Assembly (NCBI GenBank): GCA_021463865.1
Contig: JAJTXY010000020.1
Location: 1 to 64,000, forward strand
Direction: 5' to 3'
From: Anaerolineae bacterium
Lineage (GTDB): Bacteria > Chloroflexota > Anaerolineae > Aggregatilineales > J027
Length of the DNA: 64,000 nucleotides
Position 1 is the stretch's first letter. Every line of letters begins with the position of its first letter. Positions 76 to 19,888 of this stretch are shown here, piece after piece. The notes under the pieces were generated by a model that did not search any database, had not been told where the DNA came from, and saw nothing but the letters and a program-made list of their open reading frames with translations. A program made the translations under genes and the position numbers.

Positions 76-360
76 GTGGGCAATAAAAAGAAACCACATG
101 TAGGAGACTGGAATAGAAAAACCTTCAGCCCTATCGAGGTTGTGTATCATCGCACAGAGAACGAATATGGGGTATCCATCGGAGACGGTTTTGGTCTCTG
201 GCTGCTGGCGAACGAACCCGATAATCCACTGGTGATTTGTCATATGGACGATGCCGAGGGGGGCGTGGCGTTTAGTGTTGATACCGCTCTTCAGATGATC
301 CAAGCATTGTCGGCGTTGGTAGCGATCGCCAATCAGTCAAAACCAGAGGGGGATAAATAA
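76..360 (+). CDS. Small unknown protein (94 aa)
   Basis: The GTG at 76 is preferred over the GTG at 67 because AAGGAG at 62-67 then sits 8 nt upstream. The product is acidic apart from a basic start (GNKKKPH) and has no signal peptide, membrane segment or recognised motif. It follows the partial gene closely and is followed 4 nt later by another small ORF. Gene size and packing resemble phage early genes, but the function is unknown. Confidence 0.55.
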   Translation: MGNKKKPHVGDWNRKTFSPIEVVYHRTENEYGVSIGDGFGLWLLANEPDNPLVICHMDDAEGGVAFSVDTALQMIQALSALVAIANQSKPEGDK

Positions 361-665: not shown

Positions 666-739
666 GCTGGACTGGTGGAAGGGCAAACACGCCCTCGGAT
701 CGCCGGGGGAGAGTCGGGGTTCAAATCCTCGGTCTGGCA
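666..739 (+). tRNA. tRNA-like cloverleaf with an 8-nt anticodon loop
   Basis: Acceptor strands 666-672 and 732-738 pair 7/7 (two G-U). A 3-bp D stem GTG/CAC (675-677/688-690) encloses a GG-containing loop. The T arm is CGGGG-TTCAAAT-CCTCG (715-731) and the variable loop is 5 nt. The candidate anticodon stem CCCTC/GGGGG (692-696/705-709) closes an 8-nt loop, GGATCGCC, without U at the expected place before the anticodon, so no amino acid can be assigned. CCA is not encoded. It could be a degenerate phage tRNA or a tRNA mimic. Confidence 0.4.
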
Positions 740-776
740 CAAACCATCTAAAGCATATGTTGACTAGCTTTAGGTG

Positions 777-1683: not shown

Positions 1684-2604
1684 TTATTTGCCGCAATCCG
1701 GACAGATTTCCGCACGATGATATTCATTACAGCGTTGGCATAGGCTGTAGTGATGGTTTAGGCAGTATTCGCAGATTAACTCATCTTCTGCGATGGTCAA
1801 ATCTTCGATATAGTGAGTTTCGCCACAACGGTAGCAGGAATCGAAACGGTCATAGTAGCAGCGTTCGCAATACACTTCGCCGTCCGCGCCATAGTATTCA
1901 TCATCTTCATTGATGGCACGACCACAATTTGAGCAACCGTGATAATCTTCCCAGTCGAAATCGTAACGAGTGACATCCGCAATCTTTTGGGCGGTGCCGA
2001 TAATGTAACCACGTGCCCCGTTGATGTAGAGAGTACCGCTGGTAGTGTGGCGATTTGCCAGATAGATGCGCTTGTAGGTCAGATTCATAAATTTGGAAAA
2101 GACTAGGGCGATGGTCAGGGTAGAATCCCCATCAAAGCCATAGCCATTCCACAGTACCCAAAAATCGCCAGTATCAAAAAGCCACGCGCGGCCCATGCCA
2201 AAATCGTTTTCCCAAAAGCGTATGGCGATTGCGCCATTGTCCATCAGCATGTCACGGGCGGCGCTATGGTCTCCCCAATAACATGAACCATCGTCACCAA
2301 AGTCACCCTCTTCCCAGTCAATTTCGGCGGTGAAATCGAATGAGTAGGTTTGACCGGATACGAGGTTGCCGCGTGCAATGTTGCCGATTTGGGCTACTAA
2401 TTCGGCTGGAAGTTTGATGGAATGGGCTTTGAAGTAGTGGCTGGCGATACGTTTGGGCAGTTTGCCGTCACGGGTCAACCACGTCCAATCCCAATCGGAA
2501 GGCATGGGCGGATAATGTTCTTGTACTAATTTCAGGATGGCAAGCACACCAGCATCAGAGATTTGTTCGGTGGTTTGGAAGGTATAACGGAAGTTCAGTT
2601 GCAT
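1684..2604 (-). CDS. Cysteine-rich multi-zinc-ribbon protein
   Basis: The product has 306 residues. The first about 220 are soluble, aromatic and Asp-rich, with no known family. The last about 80 residues hold a ladder of CxxC pairs (CSNC, CERC, CYRC, CEYC, CQRC, CPDC), each spaced like zinc knuckles, so several zinc ions are probably bound. Such ladders occur in nucleic-acid or protein-interaction modules of phage and plasmid proteins. AGGAG lies just upstream of ATG 2604. A promoter with an overlapping palindrome (2633-2661) lies in front, so the gene is probably repressible. Confidence 0.65.
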   Translation of the reverse strand: MQLNFRYTFQTTEQISDAGVLAILKLVQEHYPPMPSDWDWTWLTRDGKLPKRIASHYFKAHSIKLPAELVAQIGNIARGNLVSGQTYSFDFTAEIDWEEGDFGDDGSCYWGDHSAARDMLMDNGAIAIRFWENDFGMGRAWLFDTGDFWVLWNGYGFDGDSTLTIALVFSKFMNLTYKRIYLANRHTTSGTLYINGARGYIIGTAQKIADVTRYDFDWEDYHGCSNCGRAINEDDEYYGADGEVYCERCYYDRFDSCYRCGETHYIEDLTIAEDELICEYCLNHHYSLCQRCNEYHRAEICPDCGK

Positions 2605-2661: not shown

Positions 2662-2738
2662 CCCCCAAAATAGGGGAGGGCGGCGGAATGATGCGATGGA
2701 AGGTTGGTAGAGGGTAGGTGGATTGGAACAAGTGAGCA

Positions 2739-2747
2739 TGTTATAAT
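2739..2747 (+). promoter_or_regulatory. Extended -10 promoter for the putative small RNA
   Basis: TG-T-TATAAT (2739-2747) is a perfect extended -10 element. There is no convincing -35, which extended -10 promoters often lack. It faces an ORF-free interval that ends in a terminator. Confidence 0.5.
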
Positions 2748-2753
2748 GGGGGT

Positions 2754-2885
2754 AGTCTTTCGCGTGTCAGAAAGATATTTACCCCAAGCGACAATCCCAC
2801 CTCACAACTAGGCCGTCGCAGTCTAGTTCGGGATAAAAAGGCAGATACGGCGGGGCGGCGCAATTTCGGCGCTGCTTTTGTTTTA
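2754..2885 (+). ncRNA. Putative structured small RNA (about 130 nt)
   Basis: No ORF with a ribosome binding site lies here on the plus strand. Three hairpins follow the extended -10 promoter. Hairpin 1 is GTCTTTC/GAAAGAT (2755-2761/2770-2776). Hairpin 2 has an outer ATCCC/GGGAT (2794-2798/2830-2834) and an inner AACTAG/CTAGTT (2806-2811/2823-2828). Hairpin 3 is GCGGCGC/GCGCTGC (2855-2861/2869-2875) followed by TTTTGTTTT, a rho-independent terminator. The segment CAACTAGGCCG (2805-2815) plus TCGCAGT recurs at 33779-33806. It could be a phage sRNA or an attachment region. Confidence 0.5.
2855..2885 (+). terminator. Rho-independent terminator of the putative small RNA
   Basis: A 7-bp stem GCGGCGC/GCGCTGC with one G-U pair and a 7-nt loop is followed by TTTTGTTTTA. 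It is well placed to end the transcript from 2754. Confidence 0.65.
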
Positions 2886-2956: not shown

Positions 2957-2985
2957 TTGACAGATGTATATACCTGTGAGATAAT
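2957..2985 (+). promoter_or_regulatory. Strong sigma-70 type promoter
   Basis: A consensus -35 TTGACA (2957-2962), a 17-nt spacer and -10 GATAAT (2980-2985) lie 45 nt upstream of the ATG at 3031. A small GGCC-AAAA-GGCC hairpin (about 3007-3018) lies in the leader next to the ribosome binding site. This is the best promoter seen at the left end of the structural operon. Confidence 0.7.
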
Positions 2986-3030
2986 GTAAGTACAGTTAAA
3001 TGAGAGGCCAAAAGGCCGAAGGAAACGAAG

Positions 3031-3624
3031 ATGAACAAGCAAAAAGTACAACAACTCATCAACCAAGAAATCGCAGAACTACACAGTCGTATCGGTGGCA
3101 AGGCTGCACGCAAGCAATATGCACCTGCCAAGTGGCAAATCGCCAAACTGACCGAACTCGGTATCCTAGACCTGATGCCAGTCGGTTTTGGTCACAGCGA
3201 CGCCGATGTCGTAATTAAGGCTGCGACCACCAAAGGCACAGCAGTATTTAACGCTGCTGGCGAAGGCGAAACAGTTTTGGCCTCCGACCTGTATAAGGCC
3301 ATCAACGAAGCCGAACCGGAAGTTACTGAAACCAAGACGTTCGTCGTTTCGAGTCGTGACAACGAAATCGAAGTGGATGGCATCTACTTTCAAGTTCAAT
3401 TTCCTCACAGCATTCATGACGACGTGAATCTCATCATCACGAACTTTCTCGCCACAGATGAGGACGGTGACGAAGTGGAAATAGACTACGTTAAAAATAT
3501 TCGCACCGTCATGGACGGTGCGGAATGGGACGGTCAAGAAATCGAAGTTGTCATCACGTCAGCGGACGTAGCAGCCGCACGTGAGGCGCTAAAAGGTTAC
3601 ACGCAATATACCTATAACTGGTAA
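3031..3624 (+). CDS. Unknown phage protein (197 aa)
   Basis: ATG 3031 follows an AAGGAAA ribosome binding site and a strong promoter. The N-terminal 45 residues are basic and helical (QQLINQEIAELHSRIGGKAARKQY), resembling a DNA-binding arm. The remainder is acidic and beta-rich. There is no signal peptide or membrane segment and no recognised family. As first gene after the promoter it may be an abundant early product. A GC-rich inverted repeat (about 3634-3668) follows the stop. Confidence 0.6.
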   Translation: MNKQKVQQLINQEIAELHSRIGGKAARKQYAPAKWQIAKLTELGILDLMPVGFGHSDADVVIKAATTKGTAVFNAAGEGETVLASDLYKAINEAEPEVTETKTFVVSSRDNEIEVDGIYFQVQFPHSIHDDVNLIITNFLATDEDGDEVEIDYVKNIRTVMDGAEWDGQEIEVVITSADVAAAREALKGYTQYTYNW

Positions 3625-3679
3625 ATAAAATCCGAAAGCGCCTCCACCTATGACCGGGCCGGGGGCGCTCCATTCCAAT

Positions 3680-3717
3680 CCTACCACATTTAGGTATCAG
3701 CACTCAAATGTGGTAGG
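3680..3717. repeat. 12-bp perfect inverted repeat
   Basis: CCTACCACATTT (3680-3691) and AAATGTGGTAGG (3706-3717) are perfect inverted copies around a 14-nt loop. No T-tract follows. It lies 60 nt before the next gene, in its leader. It could be an operator, an RNA hairpin controlling translation or a processing site. Confidence 0.6.
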
Positions 3718-3780
3718 GCAAAGTTTAGTAGGATAAGCAGTTCAATCAACTCAAAAACGCGCTTAGGAGGCGCAAAGATC

Positions 3781-4095
3781 ATGGAGAATAATTTCGTACT
3801 AGACTTCAACGAAGCCGATGATAATGATGCAATCGCAGCCCGCGTCATATCGCGTGGCTCGATCCCTTCGCCCGTGAGCGAAACTGTCATTACGGTTCGC
3901 CTCACAGAGGAATACTATAACAAGCGAAACGTGAGCGAGTACACAGTAGATAGTGCTGGCGTACACCTCATATCTGGCAAGCCCTCGGCTGCAGCCGAGT
4001 GGTCAATTTCGCGGCTACTCAAGTCAGGCCGTCGCCGCATTGAACACACAAGTGTCAGCAATCCTGAATACTTTTGGATTGCTGAGATTCTCTAG
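3781..4095 (+). CDS. Unknown phage protein (104 aa)
   Basis: A strong AGGAGG (about 3763-3768) precedes ATG 3781. The product starts acidic (DFNEADDNDAIAAR) and ends in a basic segment (LLKSGRRRIEH). It is soluble, with no recognised domain. The 12-bp inverted repeat at 3680-3717 lies in its leader. It probably belongs to the small phage genes ahead of the packaging module. Confidence 0.55.
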   Translation: MENNFVLDFNEADDNDAIAARVISRGSIPSPVSETVITVRLTEEYYNKRNVSEYTVDSAGVHLISGKPSAAAEWSISRLLKSGRRRIEHTSVSNPEYFWIAEIL

Positions 4096-4136
4096 TCAGC
4101 CCCTCCTGAGCATGAGGTAAAAAGGCTCAGGTGTTT

Positions 4137-4553
4137 ATGAAACTGATTACGTTCAAAGCCAGCGAAGACTGGCGTAACCATCTCAATGCCATCTCAGGCA
4201 AAAACACATCTGCCTATATCATCCAAGCCATCGAGGAAAAAGCAGACCGCGATGGTCAACCGTTCCCTGTGGCCGCCGTCGCGCCGCACGGGGTACGCTC
4301 GGACGCCTTACCGACAGGCTGGAAGTCGCGTCTGTACAAAGATCGCTACCAACTGGTGGCAGAATACACCGCGCAAGGCTTTGAAGTTTACCACCTGCAC
4401 GAGTATGGCAAGCTACCTGAAAATGTATTTGGTACATTGCGCGTCGAATCGCCAGCAATGGAAATTACCATCGTTGGTGTGCCGTCTGGTGTGTCCAGAG
4501 AGAACGTCGCACATGATGTCCGCCTAGCCGTCATGGAGATGGATTTATCATGA
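4137..4553 (+). CDS. Unknown phage protein (138 aa)
   Basis: Start could be ATG 4137 or GTG 4131; AAAGG at 4121-4125 fits either. The N-terminus (FKASEDWRNHLNAISGKNTSAYIIQAIEEKAD) resembles the short helical DNA-binding motif of ribbon-helix-helix proteins, followed by about 90 residues of mixed structure. That could make it a regulator, but the match is weak. The stop overlaps the next ATG (ATGA), so translation is coupled. Confidence 0.5.
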   Translation: MKLITFKASEDWRNHLNAISGKNTSAYIIQAIEEKADRDGQPFPVAAVAPHGVRSDALPTGWKSRLYKDRYQLVAEYTAQGFEVYHLHEYGKLPENVFGTLRVESPAMEITIVGVPSGVSRENVAHDVRLAVMEMDLS

Positions 4554-4777
4554 ACAACGACCAATACGCCCCGCGTTCAGAGCCTCATGGTCGTTTTGAG
4601 CGCGTTTACAACTATCGCAAGTGTCGCGCTCTATTTCGTACCAATAACTTTCGCGCACAATACTGCTGCCTGAAACACAAAAAGGCAGAAGCCAATGCAC
4701 GATACTACGAAATGCACACCGACGAACAAAAGACCCGTGCGATGGCTTCCAAGCGCCGTCGCCGTGAGCAAAAGTAA
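4550..4777 (+). CDS. Small basic protein with a Cys/His zinc-finger-like segment
   Basis: The 75-residue product holds one Cys in YRKCRALF, a CC pair and His in QYCCLKH, and then a long Arg/Lys-rich helix ending in RRRREQK. This resembles the short phage zinc fingers in which a YCS/YCC knuckle precedes a basic helix. The first knuckle has only one Cys, so metal binding is uncertain. Nucleic-acid binding is an inference from charge. It is translationally coupled to the upstream gene and followed by a terminator. Confidence 0.55.
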   Translation: MNNDQYAPRSEPHGRFERVYNYRKCRALFRTNNFRAQYCCLKHKKAEANARYYEMHTDEQKTRAMASKRRRREQK

Positions 4778-4784
4778 TCAAAAA

Positions 4785-4810
4785 GACACCCTCAGCAGGG
4801 GGTGTTTTTA
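4785..4810 (+). terminator. Rho-independent terminator
   Basis: ACACCC (4786-4791) pairs with GGGTGT (4800-4805) and T residues run to 4809. It ends the small-gene operon. Confidence 0.75.
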
Positions 4811-4860
4811 TTTTCCACACAGATGTGCTACACTTAAAAGTGAAATTGAATAGGGACTGA

Positions 4861-4907
4861 CACACCCATTGGACTTGGGATTTTTCCATTTCCGGTGGGT
4901 GTTTTTG
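4861..4907 (+). terminator. Second terminator-like hairpin
   Basis: ACACCCA (4862-4868) pairs with TGGGTGT (4896-4902) and is followed by TTTTTG. It is a second hairpin about 50 nt after the first terminator and may end a short independent transcript or act as a back-up. Confidence 0.5.
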
Positions 4908-5002
4908 TTTGTGGCTCCAATTGGTGGGGCAAGGCAAAGTAGCCGTATGGGCCGTCTACCTTGCCGATTATCAGTATAGCCCCGATTTTGGGGGGAATAG
5001 AA

Positions 5003-7149: not shown

Positions 7150-8659
7150 CACACAAGTGCTGGCAGAGCGGTGGGCGGAACGGGTTTTGCCGAAGGTAGA
7201 TAAGGGAGATTCTCTCAAGCAAGACATCCCGGATGTGGTCGAATGGGCGGAGGAGAATTTCTTCTTGCCCGAAACGAAGCGCCCGATTCAGTTGGCAAAG
7301 CATCAAAAAGAGATTCTACGATTGTTTAGCCAGCGGGATGCCGACGGGCGATTTAAGTACACGACGCTGCTGTATTCGACCATCAAAAAAAGCGGCAAGA
7401 CGACGATCAGCGGGTTGTATGCACGATGGGCAGCCGAATGTTGGGGGGACTTTCAAGAGGTCTATAACCTCGGTAACAAATTTAAGCAGGCCAAACAGCG
7501 AGCATTCAAGGCTATTCAGATGAGTTTATTCAGCGCACCGCCAGCCGTTCGGAAGCAGTGGGATTTGCAGGCGACGATTATGACCCATACGAGCGGGAGC
7601 ATTATCGAGGCGCTACCCATCAGCGCGGCAGGGGAGGCAGGTGGCAATCAATCGCTGACGGTATGGACGGAATTGTGGGGCTTCCAATATCCAGAGGCGC
7701 TGCTGATGTACGACGAACTGAAACCTGTGCCGACACGCGCATTAAGCCAGCGATTTGTTGATACCTACGCGGGTTTTAAAGGCGTATCCACCCTGCTCGA
7801 AGCGATTTGGGAGACGGGGCTTAAAGGCCAACGCCTGCATGATGAATTACCGATCTATGGCAACGACGCGGCGAGCTTGTGTGCCTATATTGACACCGGG
7901 GAAGCTGCTCGGCGGATGGCATGGCAGATCGGGGAGATCGGCGAGAAATATTATGCAGAACAGGCATTGACCGAAGACCCGATTAACTTTCGGCGGCATC
8001 ACTTAAATGAATGGGCCGAGAGCCAAGAACAACTGATCGCCTTGCCGCTGTGGGACCGGTTGGAAGATGACATCCAGATAGATGACCCTAGCAAGACGGA
8101 TGTGGTGATTGGCATCGATGCTTCGGTAAGCGGGGATTGCACGGCATTGGTCGCGGTGACAGTGGACGGTCAACAGGTGATTGAACTTGAGACGCATGTT
8201 TGGCAGCCGCCCACGAACGGGAAGATTGATTATAGCCAAACGATAGAGCCGCAATTGGCAGCCGCGATTGGACGGTATCGGGTAGTGGCAGTGGCGTATG
8301 ACCCGTATCAACTGCATGACCTGATGACACGATGGAGCAAGGATTATCCACACATTGAATTTTATCCCTTCCCACAGACAGGGGAGCGATTGCAGGCAGA
8401 CACGGCGTTGGTGGGACGGGTGAATCAGGGCACATTAACGCACACTGGAAATCAGGTGCTTCGCCAGCATGTGCAAAACGCAGATGGCAAGCCGTCCGGG
8501 GACAAGGCCATTCGTATTGTGAAGCGGGAAAACAACAAACCCGTTGATGCGGTCGTGGCACTTTCAATGGCGGCATGGAAGGCCAGTGAATTATTCAACA
8601 AGCCAAGCGGGATACCCGTGATGCAGATTCGGGTCAAGGATAGGCGAGTGAACCGATGA
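7139..8659 (+). CDS. Terminase large subunit (packaging ATPase/nuclease)
   Basis: The 506-residue motor packages phage DNA into proheads. The ATPase half has a deviant Walker A (TIKKSGKTT, about 82-90) and a Walker B-like hydrophobic strand ending in Glu (LTVWTE). The C-terminal RNase H-fold nuclease shows the acidic residues in VIGIDAS (about 325), AYDPYQ (about 386) and DAVVALS (about 469). ATG 7139 gives the usual small/large overlap. Length and order before the portal are canonical for siphoviruses. Confidence 0.88.
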   Translation: MTINTQVLAERWAERVLPKVDKGDSLKQDIPDVVEWAEENFFLPETKRPIQLAKHQKEILRLFSQRDADGRFKYTTLLYSTIKKSGKTTISGLYARWAAECWGDFQEVYNLGNKFKQAKQRAFKAIQMSLFSAPPAVRKQWDLQATIMTHTSGSIIEALPISAAGEAGGNQSLTVWTELWGFQYPEALLMYDELKPVPTRALSQRFVDTYAGFKGVSTLLEAIWETGLKGQRLHDELPIYGNDAASLCAYIDTGEAARRMAWQIGEIGEKYYAEQALTEDPINFRRHHLNEWAESQEQLIALPLWDRLEDDIQIDDPSKTDVVIGIDASVSGDCTALVAVTVDGQQVIELETHVWQPPTNGKIDYSQTIEPQLAAAIGRYRVVAVAYDPYQLHDLMTRWSKDYPHIEFYPFPQTGERLQADTALVGRVNQGTLTHTGNQVLRQHVQNADGKPSGDKAIRIVKRENNKPVDAVVALSMAAWKASELFNKPSGIPVMQIRVKDRRVNR

Positions 8660-10089
8660 ATCCGAAAAAGTGGCCTGTGATTCGAGAATTGATTGGACGG
8701 GTGCGGAGTCTGATTATTACCACCCGGCAGCGCTGGGCGTATCGGGCAACGAAAGATTTGACCCGGCCCGATTCGGCGTTTTGGGACAAGGCACGGCGTG
8801 GGTTGGCGGTGGGACTTGAAATATCTGGGCTGCTGCTGAAGCCACTTGCCTCGAAAACGTCGCAATGGGTGATGGGGAAACCGCTGCAATTTAAGCAGAG
8901 CAATCCGCGCAACCAAGAGGCGCTCAATGAATGGTGGGCAGAGAACCACAGCGAGATTTTGTTTGGGTATGAGGAAGGCGTGGCGCTCGGAAATTATTAT
9001 CTGGTGGTCAACGGGGATTTGAGCATTACGGCTGTGCAGGATGATGTGGTTGACCCGATTGTTGATGAACAGGATTATTCCAAAATTATTGGCTGGAAGA
9101 TTACGCAGCGATTCCAGCATCCGACTGAAATCGGACGGTACATGGTTGAAATTAATGAATACACCGATACCGAGCGGGTGCGGCGTGTGCAGTTTGAGAA
9201 AGGCCCGGAACAGATTGAGCGCTTCCCCAATCTGATTGGGATTTGCCCGGTGATTCATATCGCCAATAACCGCGCTTCCAATGATGTGTATGGACAGCCG
9301 GAGGGTGCAGCGCTGGTAACGAATAATAAAAGCCTGCTGCATCGTTATGGTGAGATTGTGGACGCGGGGTTGGATGGCAATATCAAACAGGGTCGGGCCA
9401 CCCCCACGATTGAATTTAAGGATGCCCAGTCGGTCAAGCAGTTCATGGATATGTATGGGAAGACTGAGGTTGACCCGGAAACAGGCGAAAGAAGTACGTA
9501 TGTGGAATTTGACGCGGACAAACTGATGGCCGTCGCGGGCAAATTTACGTATCAATCGCCGGCGGCATTTGCAGAGGAGACCGAGAAGCTGCTGGGCATC
9601 CTCTATTGGCTGTTCTTGGAGCATGTCGAAATCCCCGAATTTGTGATGGGGACGGCGATTGCATCGTCTAAGGCCAGCGCGGAAATCCAGATGCCCGTGT
9701 TCATCCGGTGGATCGAAAAGAAGCGCGGACAGGTATCGGGGTGGGTGCTTCAATTGGCCGAAGTCGTGAACGCATTGCAGGCGTTGACTATGTCCGGTGT
9801 GACCCGCGAAAAGCCCTCGATCGTGTGGGACGAATTGACCAGCGAAGACGGGGCCTTGACGCAGAAGTATGTGGAATGGGCCTACAGCGAAGGGCTGATT
9901 GACAAGAAGACGGCGCTGATGTTGGCACCCAAGAAGATCGAGGATATTGACGCGGTGTTGGCAAAGGCGGCAGCCGAGCGCAAAAACGATGATGAACAGC
10001 AAGATCGGGAGTTCACACGGGCGCTACGGAGCAATCAGGATGCCGAGGATGATGACGAAGAAGATACCGATATAGAGTTGGCTGCATAG
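8656..10089 (+). CDS. Portal protein (SPP1 gp6/HK97 type)
   Basis: It has 477 residues and is placed directly after the terminase with an ATGA overlap. Features include a basic N-terminus, the SGLLLKPLASKTSQWVMGKP helix, a wing region and a long C-terminal helical and acidic tail (DDDEEDTDIELAA). The portal forms the dodecameric channel at the capsid vertex and docks the terminase. Assignment rests on position, length and overall pattern rather than one diagnostic motif. Confidence 0.78.
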   Translation: MNPKKWPVIRELIGRVRSLIITTRQRWAYRATKDLTRPDSAFWDKARRGLAVGLEISGLLLKPLASKTSQWVMGKPLQFKQSNPRNQEALNEWWAENHSEILFGYEEGVALGNYYLVVNGDLSITAVQDDVVDPIVDEQDYSKIIGWKITQRFQHPTEIGRYMVEINEYTDTERVRRVQFEKGPEQIERFPNLIGICPVIHIANNRASNDVYGQPEGAALVTNNKSLLHRYGEIVDAGLDGNIKQGRATPTIEFKDAQSVKQFMDMYGKTEVDPETGERSTYVEFDADKLMAVAGKFTYQSPAAFAEETEKLLGILYWLFLEHVEIPEFVMGTAIASSKASAEIQMPVFIRWIEKKRGQVSGWVLQLAEVVNALQALTMSGVTREKPSIVWDELTSEDGALTQKYVEWAYSEGLIDKKTALMLAPKKIEDIDAVLAKAAAERKNDDEQQDREFTRALRSNQDAEDDDEEDTDIELAA

Positions 10090-12537: not shown

Positions 12538-14184
12538 ATGGCAGAGAAGTATTTCACAATTCCACTCTCGAATCATCCGGCACTTTTGGAGGTGCAGCAA
12601 TATCTACGCGCCAAGCTGCCAGAGGTGACAACGTGGCAGGACCCGGCGACGTTTCATATCACGCTGGTGTTCATCACGGATGACATGGGGAAGGATGCCA
12701 GCACGATCACCCCACCGGCGCTACCCGCGTTTGGTATCGGGGCATGGGGATTGGATTATTTCAATACGCCAGACGGCCTCGCGGTGCATTTGGCAGTGGA
12801 GCGCAATCCACAATTGACCGCCTTGCAGACGATGTTGTTCTATGGCGCGTTTTGGAATGGCATGGCGCTGAGTGACAAAAGCTGGCCTGCGCTGTGGAAA
12901 CCCCATATCACATTGGCGTATATGCCCATGCCAGAAGAGCCGATGAATTTATCAATGGAACTGCCCACGCCCGTTCATTTGCAGGCCGAGCGGTTTGCCC
13001 TGAGTGAAGGCGAGTATGTGGAAGTGGCGAATTATCCACTGATGATGACCATGCCGGGGCAGGCGGCCGAAATTGCGGAGATGGCACGGATCCAAGGCGG
13101 GTGGCTCTTTACTGAGTTTAAGGGCAATCACCCCAAAAACATACCGCTATTCCCCGGCGTGGATATTGACTCGCTGACGGCTGGGGATAATGAACCGAAG
13201 TACGTGATACTTCCGGTGGCTGAAGCTGACGTGGTTAGCGCGAATGGGATTTATTACAGCGAGGAATTTGTATCGGAAATCGAACGCCAGATGATTGCCA
13301 AACGTCCGACGGGCAATCAGGGCCATATCAAGGATGAAGACCGCGAGACGGTTTTCCCAACCCCGGCGGGCTATTGGGTGGGCGCGACCCGCACAGGCAA
13401 AACACTCTGGGGCAAGGCTTATTTGCCACCGAATCACCCGATGCGAGAGATGGTATTACGCGCTCTGGCAGTGGGGGGAGGCATGGCGACTTCGATTTAT
13501 GGGACCGGCAATCGAGTGTGGGACAAGACACGTGCTGCCTTTGTTGCCATCGCCAAAGAATTCAATTTGGAGCATATAGATTTCGCTCCATCAGAACGGG
13601 CAGGCGTTGGAAGTTTGGCGCGTGTGCCGGTGGTCGTATCGGAAATGAAGCATCAGGAGGACATGAAGATGCCAGAGAAGGCAGACATCATCAAGGAATT
13701 GACGGTGGGTGATATTCCACAACCGCTGAAAGACGCGATTGTGGGGGAATCATCGGCGGTCAAGGTGTTGGCGGAGATGCGTCAACAGTTGGGGCTTGGC
13801 GAGAAAGATGATCTGACGAAGGTCATTGCGGAACTGAAGGCCAAGAAGGACAAGATCGAGACGGACGCGATTGAAGCCGCGATCATCAGCGAAGTGAAGG
13901 CTCAGGTCATGCCCAGCGTCACGGTTGAAACCGATGGCGTGAAGGCCGTCCGGGGGACCATCGCTGAATTTGTACGGGCACGCAAACCCGGCCTCGGTGA
14001 CGTGTCGAAGGTTGTGAAGGAGATCGCCGAGGGTGATTTGGCGAAGGGGCTGTATGCAGGTGTGGTCACGAGCGCGATGGGGCCAGCGTTGGGGCATAGT
14101 GCCGGGGGTCAACAGGGGCAGGCAGGCAGCGGGATGTTGAGTCCTGAGAGCCAGAAGGCGCTCGCCGAATCCAAGAAAGCCTAA
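12538..14184 (+). CDS. Fusion: 2H phosphoesterase + prohead protease + scaffold
   Basis: Three parts are visible. Residues 1-185 carry two HxT motifs (FHITLVFI about 38, PHITLAYM about 122), diagnostic of 2H/LigT RNA phosphoesterases. Residues about 200-375 look like a phage prohead protease, with His in QGHIKDED (about 262) and Ser in GMATSIYG (about 318). Residues 375-500 are charged coiled coil, a scaffold/delta domain, followed by a Gly/Gln-rich tail. The position before the decoration and capsid genes fits protease plus scaffold. Family identity of the protease is inferred. Confidence 0.72.
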   Translation: MAEKYFTIPLSNHPALLEVQQYLRAKLPEVTTWQDPATFHITLVFITDDMGKDASTITPPALPAFGIGAWGLDYFNTPDGLAVHLAVERNPQLTALQTMLFYGAFWNGMALSDKSWPALWKPHITLAYMPMPEEPMNLSMELPTPVHLQAERFALSEGEYVEVANYPLMMTMPGQAAEIAEMARIQGGWLFTEFKGNHPKNIPLFPGVDIDSLTAGDNEPKYVILPVAEADVVSANGIYYSEEFVSEIERQMIAKRPTGNQGHIKDEDRETVFPTPAGYWVGATRTGKTLWGKAYLPPNHPMREMVLRALAVGGGMATSIYGTGNRVWDKTRAAFVAIAKEFNLEHIDFAPSERAGVGSLARVPVVVSEMKHQEDMKMPEKADIIKELTVGDIPQPLKDAIVGESSAVKVLAEMRQQLGLGEKDDLTKVIAELKAKKDKIETDAIEAAIISEVKAQVMPSVTVETDGVKAVRGTIAEFVRARKPGLGDVSKVVKEIAEGDLAKGLYAGVVTSAMGPALGHSAGGQQGQAGSGMLSPESQKALAESKKA

Positions 14185-14227
14185 GCATCCCCACCCCTAG
14201 CCCCTCCCCATAGCAATAGGGAGGGGG
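14185..14227 (+). repeat. Dispersed C-rich hairpin repeat, copy 2
   Basis: ATCCCCACCCCTAG leader, then CCCCTCCC (14201-14208) paired with GGGAGGGG (14219-14226). It starts at the stop codon of the protease/scaffold gene, in the short gap before the decoration gene, where the hairpin could tune downstream expression. Confidence 0.75.
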
Positions 14228-14274
14228 AGAAGAGTGGATATTGAACGCGAATGAGTATGAAGGAGACATGAGAA

Positions 14275-14643
14275 ATGGCAGCAGGTGACAACACCTATTT
14301 TGATAACGATGGCAAGGCGGTTGAAGTTGCCCTAACCAGCACCGTCGCCAAAGGGCAAGTGATCTATGCCGACGGTTGGTTGGGACTGGCGAGCGATGAT
14401 GGGATAAGCGGTGACACGATTGCCCTGAACATTGACGAGCGGGCCTATCAGCTGACGGTGCCGGCAGCGTTGGCAGTGGCGAAGGGCGCGGAAATCTGGA
14501 TTGATGTGACCGACCTAACCGGACATATCCCGGATGAGACCGCGTATTACACCGCGACTGGGGCCAACCGCGTTCGCATGTTCAAGGCGATGGAAGCCAA
14601 AGACGCGAACAACGTGGTGATCGTCAAGATGCTGCAACAGTAG
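14275..14643 (+). CDS. Capsid decoration/cement protein (DUF2190-like)
   Basis: AAGGAG precedes ATG 14275. The 122-residue product is a small beta protein (VEVALTSTVAKGQVIYADGWLGLA) with the pattern of DUF2190 capsid cement proteins, which trimerise on the capsid surface. Its place directly before the major capsid gene, after the protease, is the classical lambda gpD/HK97-type order. Confidence 0.7.
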   Translation: MAAGDNTYFDNDGKAVEVALTSTVAKGQVIYADGWLGLASDDGISGDTIALNIDERAYQLTVPAALAVAKGAEIWIDVTDLTGHIPDETAYYTATGANRVRMFKAMEAKDANNVVIVKMLQQ

Positions 14644-14702
14644 CGCGGCATCATCGAATTCGATTCAGAGAAAGACAGTTATCCAAGCGAGTGAGGTGAA
14701 GT

Positions 14703-15716
14703 ATGGTCAATTTGATTAGCAAGGACATTCTTGCTAAGGAAAAACCCAAGCTGCAATTCGACAAAGGGTTTGATTTGCGCAATGTGACCGCCGAGGGCAA
14801 AGACGGGGTGATTGCGGAATTCGTCGGTACGGGTGATTTTGCGACGGCGTGGCGCGAACGCCGAATCTATGAGATTGACGCGGGACGTGATTCGGAACCG
14901 ATTTTATACACGCCCCTCTACAGCATCGTGGAAGATGCCAGCCTGCCCGAAATCGTCCCGATTTACCGTCTAGGGCCAGCCGGGGTGATTTTCAATGAGG
15001 TCAAAGAAGGCGGAGAGGCGCATTTTGTCACCGTGCAAAGCGGCGACATCAGCGTGCGTATTCGCTGGTATAACGTCGCGCTGGAATACAGCAAGAAATT
15101 GCGGATGTATAACCAGCTATGGACGGTCTCATCGGTGGAACGGCAGGTTGGGGTGGCCCACAACGCGCTGCTGAACAACATCCACTTCTCCCCTATCTTG
15201 ACGGCGAGTTATGCGGCGGCGAACCAGACGGCGGCGGCAAGCGGCCAAGGCGGGTTGCTGCAAAACGTTCTGCGCACGATTGAGAACGGCGTCACCCATG
15301 CTAAAGCGGATGGCACGAATCCGCGCCGAGGGCCATATAACCTCGTGATTTCGAGTTCCAACATGTTCACGGTTGAACGCGCACTTCGTCGCGTGCCTCA
15401 ACAGGGCTTTGATGAGCAATCGAGTGTCCTGAACATGATCCAGAACATCATCGTCTATGACGGCTGGACGGGCTTGCGCGGCAAGAAAACCGTCACTTAT
15501 TCGGGCGTGACAGCCAACAAAGCCTATCTGGTCAATGCGGGCCAGAAGGAAATGGATTTCCTGAGCTTCGTCAAGCAATCGCTCGATATGGCGGTTGGGA
15601 ATGCTGATGTGAGTCGCGGAATTGAAGAGCAGGTTGTCTGGGACGTGCATCTGGGCGCGTATGCCAATCCGATTGCGGCGGTGGAAGAAATTACCCTGCC
15701 CACTAGCGGCGCTTAA
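14703..15716 (+). CDS. Major capsid protein
   Basis: A strong GAGGTGA lies before ATG 14703. At 337 residues, in the position after protease and decoration genes and before connectors, this is the HK97-fold capsid subunit. Typical features are an N-terminal helical arm, an extended loop region (EGGEAHFVTVQSGD) and a long central helix (SSVERQVGVAHNALLNN). The assignment is by context and length; no single motif is diagnostic in this group. Confidence 0.78.
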   Translation: MVNLISKDILAKEKPKLQFDKGFDLRNVTAEGKDGVIAEFVGTGDFATAWRERRIYEIDAGRDSEPILYTPLYSIVEDASLPEIVPIYRLGPAGVIFNEVKEGGEAHFVTVQSGDISVRIRWYNVALEYSKKLRMYNQLWTVSSVERQVGVAHNALLNNIHFSPILTASYAAANQTAAASGQGGLLQNVLRTIENGVTHAKADGTNPRRGPYNLVISSSNMFTVERALRRVPQQGFDEQSSVLNMIQNIIVYDGWTGLRGKKTVTYSGVTANKAYLVNAGQKEMDFLSFVKQSLDMAVGNADVSRGIEEQVVWDVHLGAYANPIAAVEEITLPTSGA

Positions 15717-15730
15717 CTGAGGACAGACCT

Positions 15731-16933
15731 ATGACGAAACCCATCCTCAGCATCGGCAGCCCGGATTACGATCCCTATTCGGGATATGGCAGGAAGGCGT
15801 GTGAACTTGTGGCACACCTCTCCATGCCGCGCCCGGATGACGAGCAGCGCAAAGACGGCGTGCATGTCAATGTGCTGTATCTGGACAAGGCCGTGTATCC
15901 GACGCAAACAAAGGCCTTACAAGACCTGCTCCAAAAGCCGATCCAAATGGCTTTCGGGGGGATTGTGTTGGGGTATCCGACGACGTATGGGCAATATGGC
16001 GCGATGTTGAGTAATGGGCATCGGGTGGCCCAGACGATGTTTGAATCCACCCAACTGCCCGCCGGGTGGGTTGAAATCTTAAACGAGTGCCGGGCCGTCG
16101 CTGTACCCACGCCATTGCAGAAAAGCATCATGCAGAAAAATGGGGTGCGGGTACCGGTGCATGTTGTCCCGGAAGGGGTCAGCGAGACGTTCCGATGGGT
16201 TGACCGGAGCCGTCGCCAGTATTCTGCCAAGAATCCATTCAAGTTCGTGTGCTGGGCAGACAGAGGTATGCGAAAAGGATGGGACGTGGCGGTGCAGGCG
16301 TTTGTACAGGCCTTCGGAGATCGGGATGATGTGCAGTTGGTGATTAAGGCACGTGAAAACAGCTTTAAGTTCAATCTCACCAATGCCAACATTCGGATCG
16401 TGCGAGAGGACTTTGATGAACACCAGATGCAGGAATTTTATGCAGAAATGGATTGCATGATTTTCCCATCGAGGGCGGAAGGGTTTGGATTGCCACCCAG
16501 AGAATTCGCCGCGACGGGCGGGCCAGCACTCGTAACCGAATGGTGGGCCAGCGACGTGCCGCGATGGGGGTATCCGATCCATTACAAGCTCGTTCCGGCA
16601 TGGCAGGGCGAATCGGAAGCACTCGGCAAGTGGATAGACCGATCCGTGTTTGTGGGCCTCGGTGAATGGGCCGAGCCGGATATGGGACATCTGATCCAAC
16701 AGATGCAATACATTCACCAGTCCAAGCCGGAAATGCGGAATTACATGGGGAAGGTTAGCGCGGGGAACGTGCGGACATTGTACTCATGGAAACAATTCGC
16801 GGACGGCATGTATGAGGTGTGGCAGAAAGCCATTCAGCCACGCACGGACGCAGAGCTTAGGGCACGGCGCAAAGCACGCAAGGCCAATCAGAAGGCGGTG
16901 AAGGATGCCAGCAACAGCACAGCAAATCAGTGA
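15731..16933 (+). CDS. GT4-type glycosyltransferase (GT-B fold)
   Basis: The product has 400 residues. The C-terminal half contains the donor-binding pattern FVCWADRGMRKGWDVAVQAF, VIKARE, and the retaining GT4 motif FPSRAEGFGLPPREF (catalytic-site Glu about 249). Nucleotide-sugar specificity is unknown. It sits between the capsid and connector genes, an unusual place, and is the second glycosyltransferase in the head module. The C-terminus is basic (RARRKARKANQK) and overlaps the connector gene by 29 nt. Confidence 0.8.
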   Translation: MTKPILSIGSPDYDPYSGYGRKACELVAHLSMPRPDDEQRKDGVHVNVLYLDKAVYPTQTKALQDLLQKPIQMAFGGIVLGYPTTYGQYGAMLSNGHRVAQTMFESTQLPAGWVEILNECRAVAVPTPLQKSIMQKNGVRVPVHVVPEGVSETFRWVDRSRRQYSAKNPFKFVCWADRGMRKGWDVAVQAFVQAFGDRDDVQLVIKARENSFKFNLTNANIRIVREDFDEHQMQEFYAEMDCMIFPSRAEGFGLPPREFAATGGPALVTEWWASDVPRWGYPIHYKLVPAWQGESEALGKWIDRSVFVGLGEWAEPDMGHLIQQMQYIHQSKPEMRNYMGKVSAGNVRTLYSWKQFADGMYEVWQKAIQPRTDAELRARRKARKANQKAVKDASNSTANQ

Positions 16934-17282
16934 TTTTCGGCAGGACATCGGCGATGTGGGGGCAACCCCGATCTTTGACGATGATGCTGTCCAACGGATT
17001 TTTGACCGGGCGACGGCGGCGTATTCCGATACCGCGACGTATGAGGCGGAAATGCGGGTGCTGGGCATTCGGCAAATGTTGATGGACGCGGCCAAACGGG
17101 TCTCCTATAAACAAAACCAGAGCAGCGAGAACATGAGTGATGTTTTTAAGCATCTCAAGCAGCTTCTGGACTTGTGGCAGGACATTCGGGATGACGCGGC
17201 CTCGGCGAGCAGTGGCGGCGGCGCAGCGTGGGCCAGCCTGAAGAAAAAACCAGCGCGGAGTTATGAAGTGCCGGATTCCTGA
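16905..17282 (+). CDS. Head-tail connector/adaptor protein (gp6/gp15-like)
   Basis: ATG 16905 lies inside the end of the glycosyltransferase gene, with AGAAGGCGGTGAAGG upstream. The 125-residue product is helical (ISDFRQDIGDVG, FDDDAVQRIFDRATAAY), the usual pattern of the adaptor that binds below the portal. It is the first of four small genes in the canonical connector order. Confidence 0.65.
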   Translation: MPATAQQISDFRQDIGDVGATPIFDDDAVQRIFDRATAAYSDTATYEAEMRVLGIRQMLMDAAKRVSYKQNQSSENMSDVFKHLKQLLDLWQDIRDDAASASSGGGAAWASLKKKPARSYEVPDS

Positions 17283-17302
17283 GAGGGGATAAGGAGCATT
17301 CT

Positions 17303-17689
17303 GTGATGCCAAGTATCAGCGGATGGCTGGCAAACACACAAATAGATGTTACTGACGAGGGGACGCGGGCCGTCGTTGCATGGCGAAACATACTTGACTG
17401 GCCCACGCCCATCACTCTTTATCGGAACGAATCTGCTTTAGCCGAGCAGACCGTCCGGCTTGAGTATAGCGAAGCTACGACCTCGGCGGAAGGAAGAGGG
17501 CCAGCAGGTCAACCGAGTGAACGCCAACTGACCGTGTTTGGGGTGCGGAATCACCCGACAGTGGAAGACACCAATATCCAGCGGGGTGATCTCTTTAAAT
17601 ATCAAGGGGATACCTACTCAGTTGTAGATGTCATCTTAAAAAGAGGCAGCTTAGAAGCATATACGGAGCGGTTGCAAAGTGGCGGGTAG
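17303..17689 (+). CDS. Head closure (stopper-like) protein
   Basis: AAGGAG (17291-17296) supports GTG 17303 or ATG 17306. The 128-residue product is beta-rich with a GRGPAGQPSERQLTVFG loop and RGDLFKYQGDTYSVVDV strands, typical of the small barrel head-closure proteins. Position between adaptor and tail-completion genes supports this. It overlaps the next gene by 11 nt. Confidence 0.6.
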   Translation: MMPSISGWLANTQIDVTDEGTRAVVAWRNILDWPTPITLYRNESALAEQTVRLEYSEATTSAEGRGPAGQPSERQLTVFGVRNHPTVEDTNIQRGDLFKYQGDTYSVVDVILKRGSLEAYTERLQSGG

Positions 17690-18041
17690 TTCGTTTCGGT
17701 GGACAAGAACACCGACACAGGCATGGAGAGCAGGCGCGGCGGTGTATGTGGCGCGGCTAGATATGGCGATTGGGGAACTGCTGAGTTTTTGGGCAGGGCC
17801 AATCGAAAAGGCCATGAAAAGCAATGCTGTTTGGGAAGATCAGACAGGCAATGCGCGGCAGACGCTGGCGGCGTTCGCCTACAAAAAGTCGAACACGACA
17901 TGGGCGCTGATTGCCAAGCAGCAGATGACGTATGGGCGGTTCCTCGAACTCTCCAATGGTGGGAAATACCAAATCGTCATGCCGACTTTGCAAAGCCATT
18001 ACCCGCGCATCTGGCCCAGCCTACAGGATGTGGTGAGATGA
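17679..18041 (+). CDS. Tail completion protein (HK97 gp10-like)
   Basis: The start is GTG 17679. The 120-residue product contains WEDQTGNARQTLAAF, the W-x-D-x-T-G-x-A/L-R element of the HK97 gp10/phage-protein family, and LELSNGGKYQIVMPTL, its conserved end. This family caps or completes the tail. It overlaps the next gene by ATGA. Confidence 0.72.
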   Translation: MAGSSFRWTRTPTQAWRAGAAVYVARLDMAIGELLSFWAGPIEKAMKSNAVWEDQTGNARQTLAAFAYKKSNTTWALIAKQQMTYGRFLELSNGGKYQIVMPTLQSHYPRIWPSLQDVVR

Positions 18042-18502
18042 CGACGATCCGGGAAGCAGTACGGGCAGTTTTGACGGGCGATGCGACGTTGGCGGCGCTG
18101 GCGACAGGCGGCATCCATGACGATGACTCGTTGGATAACCGCAACGGGCTAACTCCCCAAGCATTGCAGGCCGCGAATTCGCCACTGATCCGGCCCGGCA
18201 TCTACATCGGGTGGACGACGAGCGACCCGTTTGGCGTGAATGATGCCACGCTGCACGCGGAGAGAGGCTTCTTTGAGGTCTATTTCTATCAGCATGAAGG
18301 ATATGACGTGATTACCGCCATGCGTGACCGGGTGAAGCGATTGTTGCATCAGCAGCGGGTGAATTTTGATACCCCGGCGAATCAGTATAACCACGCAATT
18401 TTGTGGGCCGGGGATGTGTTGAACATGAAAGACGAAGAGATGGCGGGGGCCAGCATGGAGCGCTCTCGCTTTGAAGTGCATATCAGGAGGCTAGATTACT
18501 AA
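18038..18502 (+). CDS. Tail terminator protein
   Basis: ATG 18038 overlaps the preceding stop (ATGA); the longer open frame back to 17699 is rejected because it is antisense-like overlap of a real gene. The 154-residue product starts TIREAVRAVLTGDATLAAL and has an alternating beta body, as in DUF3168-like tail terminators that stop tail tube growth. Assignment is mostly positional, just before the tail tube gene. Confidence 0.65.
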   Translation: MTTIREAVRAVLTGDATLAALATGGIHDDDSLDNRNGLTPQALQAANSPLIRPGIYIGWTTSDPFGVNDATLHAERGFFEVYFYQHEGYDVITAMRDRVKRLLHQQRVNFDTPANQYNHAILWAGDVLNMKDEEMAGASMERSRFEVHIRRLDY

Positions 18503-18504
18503 CC

Positions 18505-19104
18505 ATGACACTCACGAATCTCAATCAGGATTATCCCTATTCAGTCGTCGCGGCGAAGGTGGCCCGCTGGACACAATCCACATCCACCTATACAGCGACG
18601 GCAGTGGCGCTGGCATCTCTGCAGGGCTTTGATTTCAAGCCGAATCGTGCCACCGACAAGCGGTACAGCTATGGGAAGACCGAGGGCATGATCTCCATTC
18701 TGGAAGACATTGAACTCAAACTCAACGTCACGGGAATGGACTATCCGGCGATGACCGAAATGACGGGGCGGGGCGTGACCGACAGCGGATCGGGTGCGAT
18801 GCAGTATTCCGATTTGGCAGCCGGGGGCGCGGGCTTCAGCTATTTCGGATTTGCCGTCGCCATGCCAGCCGACAACGGGGGACAAGTTCACTTGTATTGC
18901 CCGTGTGTGATGCTAAATGACGACATTTGGAACATCACCGCCGAACGCAACAAGTTTGTGGTCTCGGAAGTGAACGCCACCGCGATGTCCTTGCGACTGA
19001 CCAGCACCACCGTGCTTGTGCCGGGGCGCTTAGTCCGTTGGCCTGCCCCCACCGCCTTGCCAGTTGATTTCAACGTGTGGAAGACCCAGCTTTTGGCGGC
19101 ATAG
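18505..19104 (+). CDS. Major tail tube protein
   Basis: AGGAGG upstream of ATG 18505 is strong, as expected for an abundant protein. The 199-residue product has the beta-sandwich character of tail tube subunits and a GFDFKPNRATDKRYSYGKTEGMIS loop. It lies between the terminator gene and the chaperones/tape measure, its standard place. Distinct family motifs are weak, so the call is contextual. Confidence 0.7.
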   Translation: MTLTNLNQDYPYSVVAAKVARWTQSTSTYTATAVALASLQGFDFKPNRATDKRYSYGKTEGMISILEDIELKLNVTGMDYPAMTEMTGRGVTDSGSGAMQYSDLAAGGAGFSYFGFAVAMPADNGGQVHLYCPCVMLNDDIWNITAERNKFVVSEVNATAMSLRLTSTTVLVPGRLVRWPAPTALPVDFNVWKTQLLAA

Positions 19105-19173
19105 GCAGCCTGAATTTTTGAACCAAAGCAGGCCGTCAGCGCGGCGGCCTATGGATTTTTTTGGAGGTGGAGA

Positions 19174-19680
19174 TTGGTCAATCAGAAGAATGGAACCGGC
19201 CATGCCGCGACTTCGCTTGAGGCATGGAATGAATTTAACAGCGAGATCATTCAGGTCAGTGATCGCTTGGCGATTGAAGTGGCCGGGTATGACGTGATGG
19301 CGCTGCTGACGGGCGGGCGGAATCCGATCTTGGCGATCATCCAAGATATGGTCGAACGTGACGCGGAAGGCAAGCCGCAACTGGACAAGATCAACGAAGC
19401 GGCGATGCTCGATAACCCGGAGAAGCTGGCGGAACTGTCGCAGGCGCTCGATCAGTTGCTGATTGATATTGTCATCAATCCACCGCTGAAAGAACAGGGC
19501 CACGAGAAGGGCTATTCGCTGGTACGCATCCCGTTCAATTACAAAATGAAAGTTTTTGAGCACATCAGCGGAGGCGAGCAAGCCCTGACTGCGGCGCAAC
19601 GATTTCATACGCCAGAGACCACAAGTTTGGTCATTGCACCTGCAAGCGCAGGATTACGGCCAGAGACCGAGCCAAATTAA
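19174..19680 (+). CDS. Tail assembly chaperone, first part (gpG-like)
   Basis: A strong GGAGGTGGAGA precedes a TTG start at 19174. The 168-residue product is helical and lies immediately before the tape-measure gene. Its final 92 nt (19589-19680) overlap a second open frame shifted +1 (equal to -2), the hallmark of G/GT pairs in which a few percent of ribosomes shift to make a longer chaperone. The gene begins in the gap after the tail tube gene. Confidence 0.7.
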   Translation: MVNQKNGTGHAATSLEAWNEFNSEIIQVSDRLAIEVAGYDVMALLTGGRNPILAIIQDMVERDAEGKPQLDKINEAAMLDNPEKLAELSQALDQLLIDIVINPPLKEQGHEKGYSLVRIPFNYKMKVFEHISGGEQALTAAQRFHTPETTSLVIAPASAGLRPETEPN

Positions 19681-19888
19681 GGGCCTGCGACACCCGATCC
19701 TAGCGGTGTGGTTTGATGAGGCAGTGCATTGGTTTGGGCGGTGGGTCGAGGGAATGATGGCACAAACGAAAGAGGTCAAGGATGGGAGGGGCAACACGAA
19801 ACACGTGCCCAAACATCGGATCGAACTTTTGTTGGGGCTGGAACTCCCGAAACGGACGATTAATCCAGCGGATTTTGGTTTTGTGTAA
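19634..19888 (+). CDS. Tail assembly chaperone, second part (gpT-like, probably expressed by frameshift)
   Basis: The frame is open from 19589 to 19888 after a TGA at 19586-19588. It has no convincing ribosome binding site (a TTG at 19634 is the only early start), so expression by ribosomal frameshifting from the upstream chaperone is likely. The shift needed is +1 or -2, as seen in Mu-type tails rather than the lambda -1. The product is basic (TKEVKDGRGNTKHVPKHR). It lies directly before the tape measure. Confidence 0.6.
   Translation: MHLQAQDYGQRPSQIKGLRHPILAVWFDEAVHWFGRWVEGMMAQTKEVKDGRGNTKHVPKHRIELLLGLELPKRTINPADFGFV

What the first reader, a model, noticed from the sequence alone, without database searches (positions are those of the whole stretch)
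2739..2885. Putative undescribed phage small RNA with promoter, three hairpins and terminator
The sequence shows an extended -10 (TGT-TATAAT), no ORF, hairpin 1 (2755-2776), a two-part hairpin 2 (2794-2834) and a terminator hairpin plus T-tract (2855-2885). Convergence of a promoter, ordered stems and a terminator in 150 bp with no gene is what a small RNA gene looks like. I recognise no known family. Hairpin 2's loop sequence includes GGCCGTCGCAG, a possible pairing seed.
Basis: partly seen in the sequence, partly recalled or inferred. Interest (0 to 1): 0.72.

Follow-up and report, generated by a model that had tools for sequence, protein, structure and literature searches.

The report
Pseudoknotted small RNA in Anaerolineae phage
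A bacterial virus integrated in an Anaerolineae (Chloroflexota) genome carries a small RNA gene that no public RNA library describes; its folded shape is preserved by matched mutations in two related viruses, so the RNA itself is under selection although its job is unknown.

Summary
In detail: extended -10 (2739-2747), hairpins and terminator (to 2884) lie where stated. One-sequence folding was unconvincing (z -0.84), but comparison is decisive. Two phage loci of the same Anaerolineae genus (L014, L013) carry the element from promoter to T-tract at about 80% identity. All six pairs of stem P2b are kept in all three copies, five with changes on both sides, while the terminator, hairpin 1, C-rich arm and loop are nearly invariant. 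Indels break any shared reading frame. The 'seed' loop GCCGUCGC is better read as one half of a pseudoknot with GCGAC (2788-2792): invariant, so not covariation-tested. The RNA stands at the entrance of the late operon, followed in the relatives by a second promoter-hairpin-terminator unit (RNA2) and a holin-like gene; in the window a 1.9-kb three-gene cassette sits between them. So it is a discrete transcription unit, more likely a trans-acting phage sRNA than a late-operon leader, but this choice is inference. No Rfam family matches; copies were found only in this genus. A second dispersed RNA-like family there ('type B') shares the architecture and twice the late-operon position; homology is unproven. 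New RNA family of a known kind (phage sRNA).

The parts
2714..2747 (+). Promoter region of RNA1: conserved upstream block and extended -10 (TG 2739-2740, TATAAT 2742-2747); no clear -35
   Evidence: GTGAGCATGTTATAATG invariant in three homologues; the win/G003 alignment starts at 2714
2748..2884 (+). RNA1 transcribed body; start expected near 2752-2755 (about 7 nt after the -10, inferred), end at the T-tract
   Evidence: conserved as a block in L014:296-481(-) and L013:9984-10157(-)
2749..2785 (+). P1: GTCTTTC 2755-2761 / GAAAGAT 2770-2776 capped by GCGTGTCA, with an outer stem 2749-2754/2780-2785 whose register and length differ in homologues
   Evidence: P1b: 6 of 7 pairs never vary, so conserved in sequence and uninformative on covariation
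2788..2792 (+). GCGAC, 5' strand of the proposed pseudoknot with loop GTCGC 2815-2819
   Evidence: 5 contiguous pairs, invariant in three homologues; shuffle P about 0.02 each for win and G003, 0.0001 for G002, which has a run of 8
2795..2805 (+). UCCCACCUCAC arm; invariant UCCCACCUC; UCCC may pair with GGGA 2830-2833 (P2a), ACCUC mostly unpaired in the window RNA; CACCUC resembles an anti-Shine-Dalgarno sequence
   Evidence: P2a pairs never vary
2806..2828 (+). P2b stem AACTAGG/TCTAGTT with loop CCGTCGCAG
   Evidence: six pairs counted: all kept in all three, five with changes on both sides
2815..2819 (+). GTCGC, loop strand of the proposed pseudoknot
2855..2884 (+). Intrinsic terminator: stem 2855-2861/2869-2875, T-tract 2876-2884
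   Evidence: invariant stem in three homologues, whose similarity to the window ends at 2884
2957..4815 (+). Cassette inserted between RNA1 and RNA2 in this phage: promoter 2957-2985, ORFs 3031-3624, 3781-4095 and 4131-4553, terminator-like ACACCC...GGGTGTTTTTATTTT near 4787-4815
   Evidence: absent in G002 and G003; no Pfam or PHROG match for its proteins
4814..4915 (+). RNA2: second conserved promoter-hairpin-terminator unit just upstream of the late operon; its counterpart follows RNA1's terminator directly in the relatives
   Evidence: similar unit in G004 and G002:C210
5003..5638 (+). First late gene: holin-like N-terminus plus coiled coil (GTG start inferred), followed by terminase small and large subunit and portal genes

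Best explanation
RNA1 (about 2754-2884, +) is a discrete small RNA gene of a siphovirus-type prophage. Host RNA polymerase starts at an extended -10 promoter and stops at its own intrinsic terminator, giving an RNA of about 130 nt with hairpin P1, a C-rich arm, hairpin P2b and a terminator hairpin (promoter, terminator and P2b shown by comparison; the transcript itself is inferred). The P2b loop probably folds back onto GCGAC just upstream, making a pseudoknot that competes with P2a and would free the UCCCACCUC arm (inferred). The most likely action is in trans: the presented C-rich, anti-Shine-Dalgarno-like arm pairs with G-rich ribosome-binding sites of phage or host mRNAs, or the invariant P1 and loop are read by a protein, around the early-to-late switch (inferred). 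Confidence that it is a functional structured RNA is about 0.93; the number below is for the trans-acting sRNA reading.
For: P2b covariation. Between the window and G003 the conserved stretch is 2714-2884, that is, from promoter to T-tract, with the flanks unrelated there. Own terminator preserved, and a three-gene cassette with its own promoter and terminator lies downstream of it without disturbing RNA1, so RNA1 need not adjoin the late genes. G-U pairs are used in P2b, as expected for RNA rather than a DNA cruciform. No conserved frame. Not a repeat, crRNA-like or self-targeting sequence: one copy in its own genome.
Against: No transcript data. Only three homologues, all in one genus. The single-sequence energy is not exceptional. 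A small duplex screen of the arm against 87 start regions of the window found nothing better than shuffled arms (best -17.1 against shuffled median -18.5 kcal/mol). The position at the entrance of the late operon also suits a leader.
Confidence: 0.55

Rival explanations
1. RNA1 is the terminated leader of the phage late operon, like the lambda PR'-tR' transcript: polymerase stops at 2884 until a phage antiterminator, or the RNA itself in the manner of HK022 put, lets it read into the late genes.
For: RNA1 lies on the late strand, and in G002 and G003 it is followed directly by RNA2 and the holin-like first late gene, the position of the lambda late promoter. RNA2 repeats the promoter-terminator pattern.
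Against: RNA2, not RNA1, adjoins the operon; in the window a 1.9-kb cassette with its own promoter and terminator intervenes. A leader of the lambda type does not require a covarying stem. No Q-like gene was identified.
Confidence: 0.25
2. RNA1 acts by binding a protein (decoy, guide or scaffold, for example against a host defence or RNA-binding protein) through the invariant P1 loop and pseudoknot, without base-pairing to mRNAs.
For: P1 stem and loop and GCCGUCGC are invariant in sequence while P2b only keeps its pairing, a pattern expected for a specific binding site; no convincing mRNA target.
Against: No protein partner is known; invariance among three close copies is weak evidence.
Confidence: 0.15
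3. Not an RNA gene: the conserved block is a DNA site or part of a coding region, and the stems are coincidence.
For: Antisense frames are open in the window and G002; single-sequence folding is unremarkable.
Against: P2b covariation including G-U pairs; frame-breaking indels of 1, 1 and 4 nt and no shared start codon; block bounded by promoter and terminator.
Confidence: 0.05

Closest known systems
IsrK, Gifsy-1 prophage of Salmonella (PMC4825925)
   Same: Prophage sRNA with its own promoter and terminator in a region tied to late-gene antitermination; a short terminated RNA acts in trans.
   Different: IsrK also exists as a read-through mRNA and its locus holds a Q-like antiterminator; no such gene is identified here. 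No sequence relation was seen: no Rfam hit and no hit among phage records.
Lambda late leader transcript PR'-tR' (own knowledge; Q mechanism in PMC6606751, listed)
   Same: Constitutive-looking promoter and terminator directly before the lysis and late genes.
   Different: RNA1 has a covarying stem and can be separated from the late operon by a cassette; RNA2 is the better positional counterpart.
Other phage sRNAs reviewed in PMC12197685 (OOP, PreS, sar, DicF, PAK_P4as15)
   Same: Short phage-borne noncoding RNAs acting on phage or host mRNAs.
   Different: The review does not mention Chloroflexota; RNA1 has a proposed pseudoknot and no antisense partner in the window.
Type B elements of the same genus (this work)
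   Same: -10 of the same form, upstream strand pairing with the loop of a hairpin, a CCCACC arm, a GGCGC...GCGCC-TTTTGTTT terminator; twice in front of cargo, RNA2 and a phage late operon.
   Different: The core shows no sequence similarity beyond chance and the models cross-match only weakly (17-20 bits one way, 12 bits the other); mostly dispersed at chromosomal sites, several copies decayed.

Membership tests
Phage-encoded small noncoding RNA | Discrete unit with own promoter and terminator in a phage genome | tested here: met
Phage-encoded small noncoding RNA | Structure conserved by compensatory change; no conserved ORF | tested here: met
Phage-encoded small noncoding RNA | Transcript detected | not testable with these tools
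   no RNA-seq available
Any Rfam family | Match at the gathering score | tested here: not met
   only a tRNA at 777-860 in the whole window; nothing overlapping RNA1 on its strand even at E 10
Lambda-type late leader (PR'-tR') | Promoter and terminator directly upstream of the late operon | tested here: inconclusive
   true with RNA2 in between in G002 and G003; separated by a cassette in the window
Lambda-type late leader (PR'-tR') | Q-type antiterminator and its DNA site | not tested
   no dedicated search; the proteins scanned near RNA1 gave no antiterminator family
HK022 put-type antiterminator RNA | Two-hairpin RNA that lets polymerase pass downstream terminators | not testable with these tools
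   needs transcription assays
CRISPR-derived or anti-CRISPR RNA | Similarity to CRISPR repeats of the host genus | tested here: not met
   no second copy or repeat in its own genome; no similarity to the G004 array seen in the alignments
Type B element family | Significant match to the type B covariance model | tested here: not met
   12.3 bits, E 1.5, though at the exact place and strand; core similarity at chance level

The most novel reading that the evidence does not exclude
RNA1 is the phage branch of a genus-wide family of pseudoknotted small RNAs: dispersed chromosomal and prophage-flanking copies (type B) and late-control copies (type A) share one architecture, in which a hairpin loop pairs with a strand upstream of a C-rich arm, while the pairing sequence has been rewired. 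Phages of these Chloroflexota would then carry their own version of a resident small RNA, to mimic or override it at the switch to late gene expression.
Probability: 0.25. Interest if true: 0.68.

Novelty: new member of a known kind. Interest (0 to 1): 0.45.

Why it matters
The literature searches here turned up nothing on small RNAs of Chloroflexota phages. A structure-conserved RNA at the entrance of the late operon, next to a second such unit, gives a concrete and testable entry to late-gene control in these phages, and the two RNA-like families in one genus offer a case of how phage and chromosomal small RNAs exchange or converge. It also shows that a reading from raw sequence can be confirmed by covariation with only two homologues.

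Tried and rejected
Rfam at gathering level and at E 10: nothing on RNA1's strand. Phage and plasmid records by blastn: none. IMG/VR by protein neighbours: none; by terminase: two short contigs without RNA1. DNA patterns in IMG/VR gave chance hits, those lying in coding sequence. The genome pattern scan returned only the two copies already known plus chance hits. Covariance model R1 in 154 genomes of the order and 400 of the phylum: only the three copies, plus a 29-bit match in G052 judged false after inspection (GC-rich, lacks the P1 and loop motifs). CRISPR repeat or self-target: rejected. Free seed loop: replaced by the pseudoknot. Protein coding: rejected. Target screen of the C-rich arm: nothing above shuffles. 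MAFFT misplaces GCGAC in G003, so pseudoknot pairs were read from a hand alignment. Type A-type B homology by sequence: not shown.

Full report
What is there. The listed features are at the stated places. The extended -10 TGT-TATAAT ends at 2747. Hairpin P1 is 2755-2761/2770-2776, with an outer extension 2749-2754/2780-2785. Hairpin 2 has a lower part P2a (2795-2798/2830-2833) and an upper part P2b (2806-2812/2822-2828). The terminator is 2855-2861/2869-2875 with T-tract 2876-2884. On one sequence this would not impress: the fold is only 0.84 sd better than shuffles, and the antisense strand folds as well. Rfam has nothing that overlaps it on its strand.

Homologues. BLAST in whole genomes found two copies in the same genus: L014 (G002:C310) and L013 (G003:C28). 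Identity is about 80%. Against G003 the alignment runs from 2714 to 2884, that is from the promoter to the end of the T-tract. The 17 bases GTGAGCATGTTATAATG are the same in all three.

Structure. In the structure-guided alignment the six counted P2b pairs are standard in all three sequences and five differ on both sides: AU/CG/GU, AU/CG/UA, CG/UA, AU/CG, GC/AU; the sixth is GC/GU. Sliding the partners by 1-3 columns destroys this, and in 3000 column shuffles no six-pair helix reached more than two such pairs. P1b, P2a and the terminator are nearly invariant and so neither support nor oppose pairing. The loop sequence CCGUCGC is invariant and its GUCGC is the reverse complement of invariant GCGAC 2788-2792. 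The chance of such a run is about 0.02 each for win and G003 and 0.0001 for G002, where it extends to eight. Only two to four nucleotides separate GCGAC from P2a, so the pseudoknot and P2a are probably alternatives (inference from loop geometry). In the pseudoknot form UCCCACCUC would be free. Indels of 1, 1 and 4 nt between the window and G002, and stops and shifts in G003, exclude a conserved reading frame.

Surroundings. The window holds a tailed phage: terminase small and large subunits, portal-like and head morphogenesis proteins, tape measure, integrase. RNA1 lies at the entrance of the late operon. In G002 and G003 the RNA1 terminator is followed directly by a second conserved unit, RNA2 (-10-like TGCTACACT, long hairpin, T-tract), then a covarying hairpin and the holin-like first late gene. 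In the window a cassette of three small unknown genes with its own promoter (TTGACA-17-GATAAT, 2957-2985) and terminator sits between RNA1 and RNA2. RNA1 therefore behaves as an insulated unit.

A second family. The related late operons of G004 and G002:C210 lack a close RNA1, but at the matching place, in front of a large cargo gene, RNA2 and the late genes, they carry an element found weakly by the RNA1 model (20.5 and 17.6 bits). These two are 90% identical to each other and belong to a family, type B, with further copies at chromosomal sites in all five genomes of the genus, including the window's own (G000:C23), some decayed. Type B also has an upstream strand that can pair with the loop of a hairpin; in G004 CCCUC/GAGGG, in C210 UCCUC/GAGGA, one compensatory change. 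The two families' cores are not similar beyond chance, and the type B model finds RNA1 only at 12.3 bits, E 1.5, although at the right place. I treat common descent as possible, not shown.

Mechanism. That the RNA is real and structured is well supported; that it is transcribed and ends at 2884 follows from conserved signals but is not measured. Trans action is preferred over a late leader because RNA1 has its own terminator, RNA2 is the unit next to the operon, and the cassette separates RNA1 from it. The conserved arm contains CACCUC, like the anti-Shine-Dalgarno end of 16S rRNA (own knowledge), so pairing with ribosome-binding sites is a natural guess; a small screen in the window gave no target above shuffles. 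Binding of a protein to the invariant P1 and loop is the main alternative within the trans reading.

Known things. IsrK of Gifsy-1 (PMC4825925) is the closest in kind: a prophage sRNA with terminator near late antitermination. The lambda late leader is closest in position. Neither is related in sequence. No small RNA of Chloroflexota phages turned up in the searches made, which cover open-licence papers only.

Noticed in passing
window 4814-4915 (RNA2); L014 about 205-304(-); L013 about 9880-9992(-); L034 about 7565-7650(-); L063 about 9805-9895: Second conserved promoter-hairpin-terminator unit directly before the late operon, with changes kept in pairs between subgroups (ACACCCA/TGGGTGT against ACAGCCCG/CGGGCTGT); best candidate for a late promoter leader.
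   Followed up: partly
window 4932-4967: Covarying hairpin GGCAAGG...CCTTGCC upstream of the holin-like gene, conserved in G002 and G003.
   Followed up: partly
G002:C210:21555-21716, G002:C288:25510-25677, G004:C12:38345-38507, G004:C21:365092-365237, G004:C9:338043-338177, G003:C28:27942-28096, G000:C23:301885-302026, G001:C7:271513-271624: Type B: dispersed family of about 150-bp sRNA-like elements bounded by a -10 and a terminator, in all five genomes of the genus, some copies near tRNA or 6S RNA genes, some decayed.
   Followed up: partly
window 666-740 and 777-861: Two tRNA-like genes that ARAGORN gives four-base anticodons (atcg, ccag); the second also matches Rfam tRNA at 43 bits.
   Followed up: no
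window 2957-4815: Three-gene cassette without Pfam or PHROG matches, inserted between RNA1's terminator and RNA2's promoter; G004 and G002:C210 have large repeat-containing proteins of 1496 and 946 aa at the matching place.
   Followed up: partly
L034:12590-13510 and 13893-19884: CRISPR array with type III-like cas genes (judged from the translations, not searched) directly upstream of the type B element and phage late module in G004.
   Followed up: no
L013:10344-10419(-): tRNA-His gene about 190 bp upstream of RNA1 in the G003 phage.
   Followed up: no
window 1684-2604(-): 306-aa protein with C-terminal zinc-ribbon/LIM-like motifs, divergent from RNA1 and shared with G002 (40% identity) but not found in 297 other genomes of the class.
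   Followed up: no
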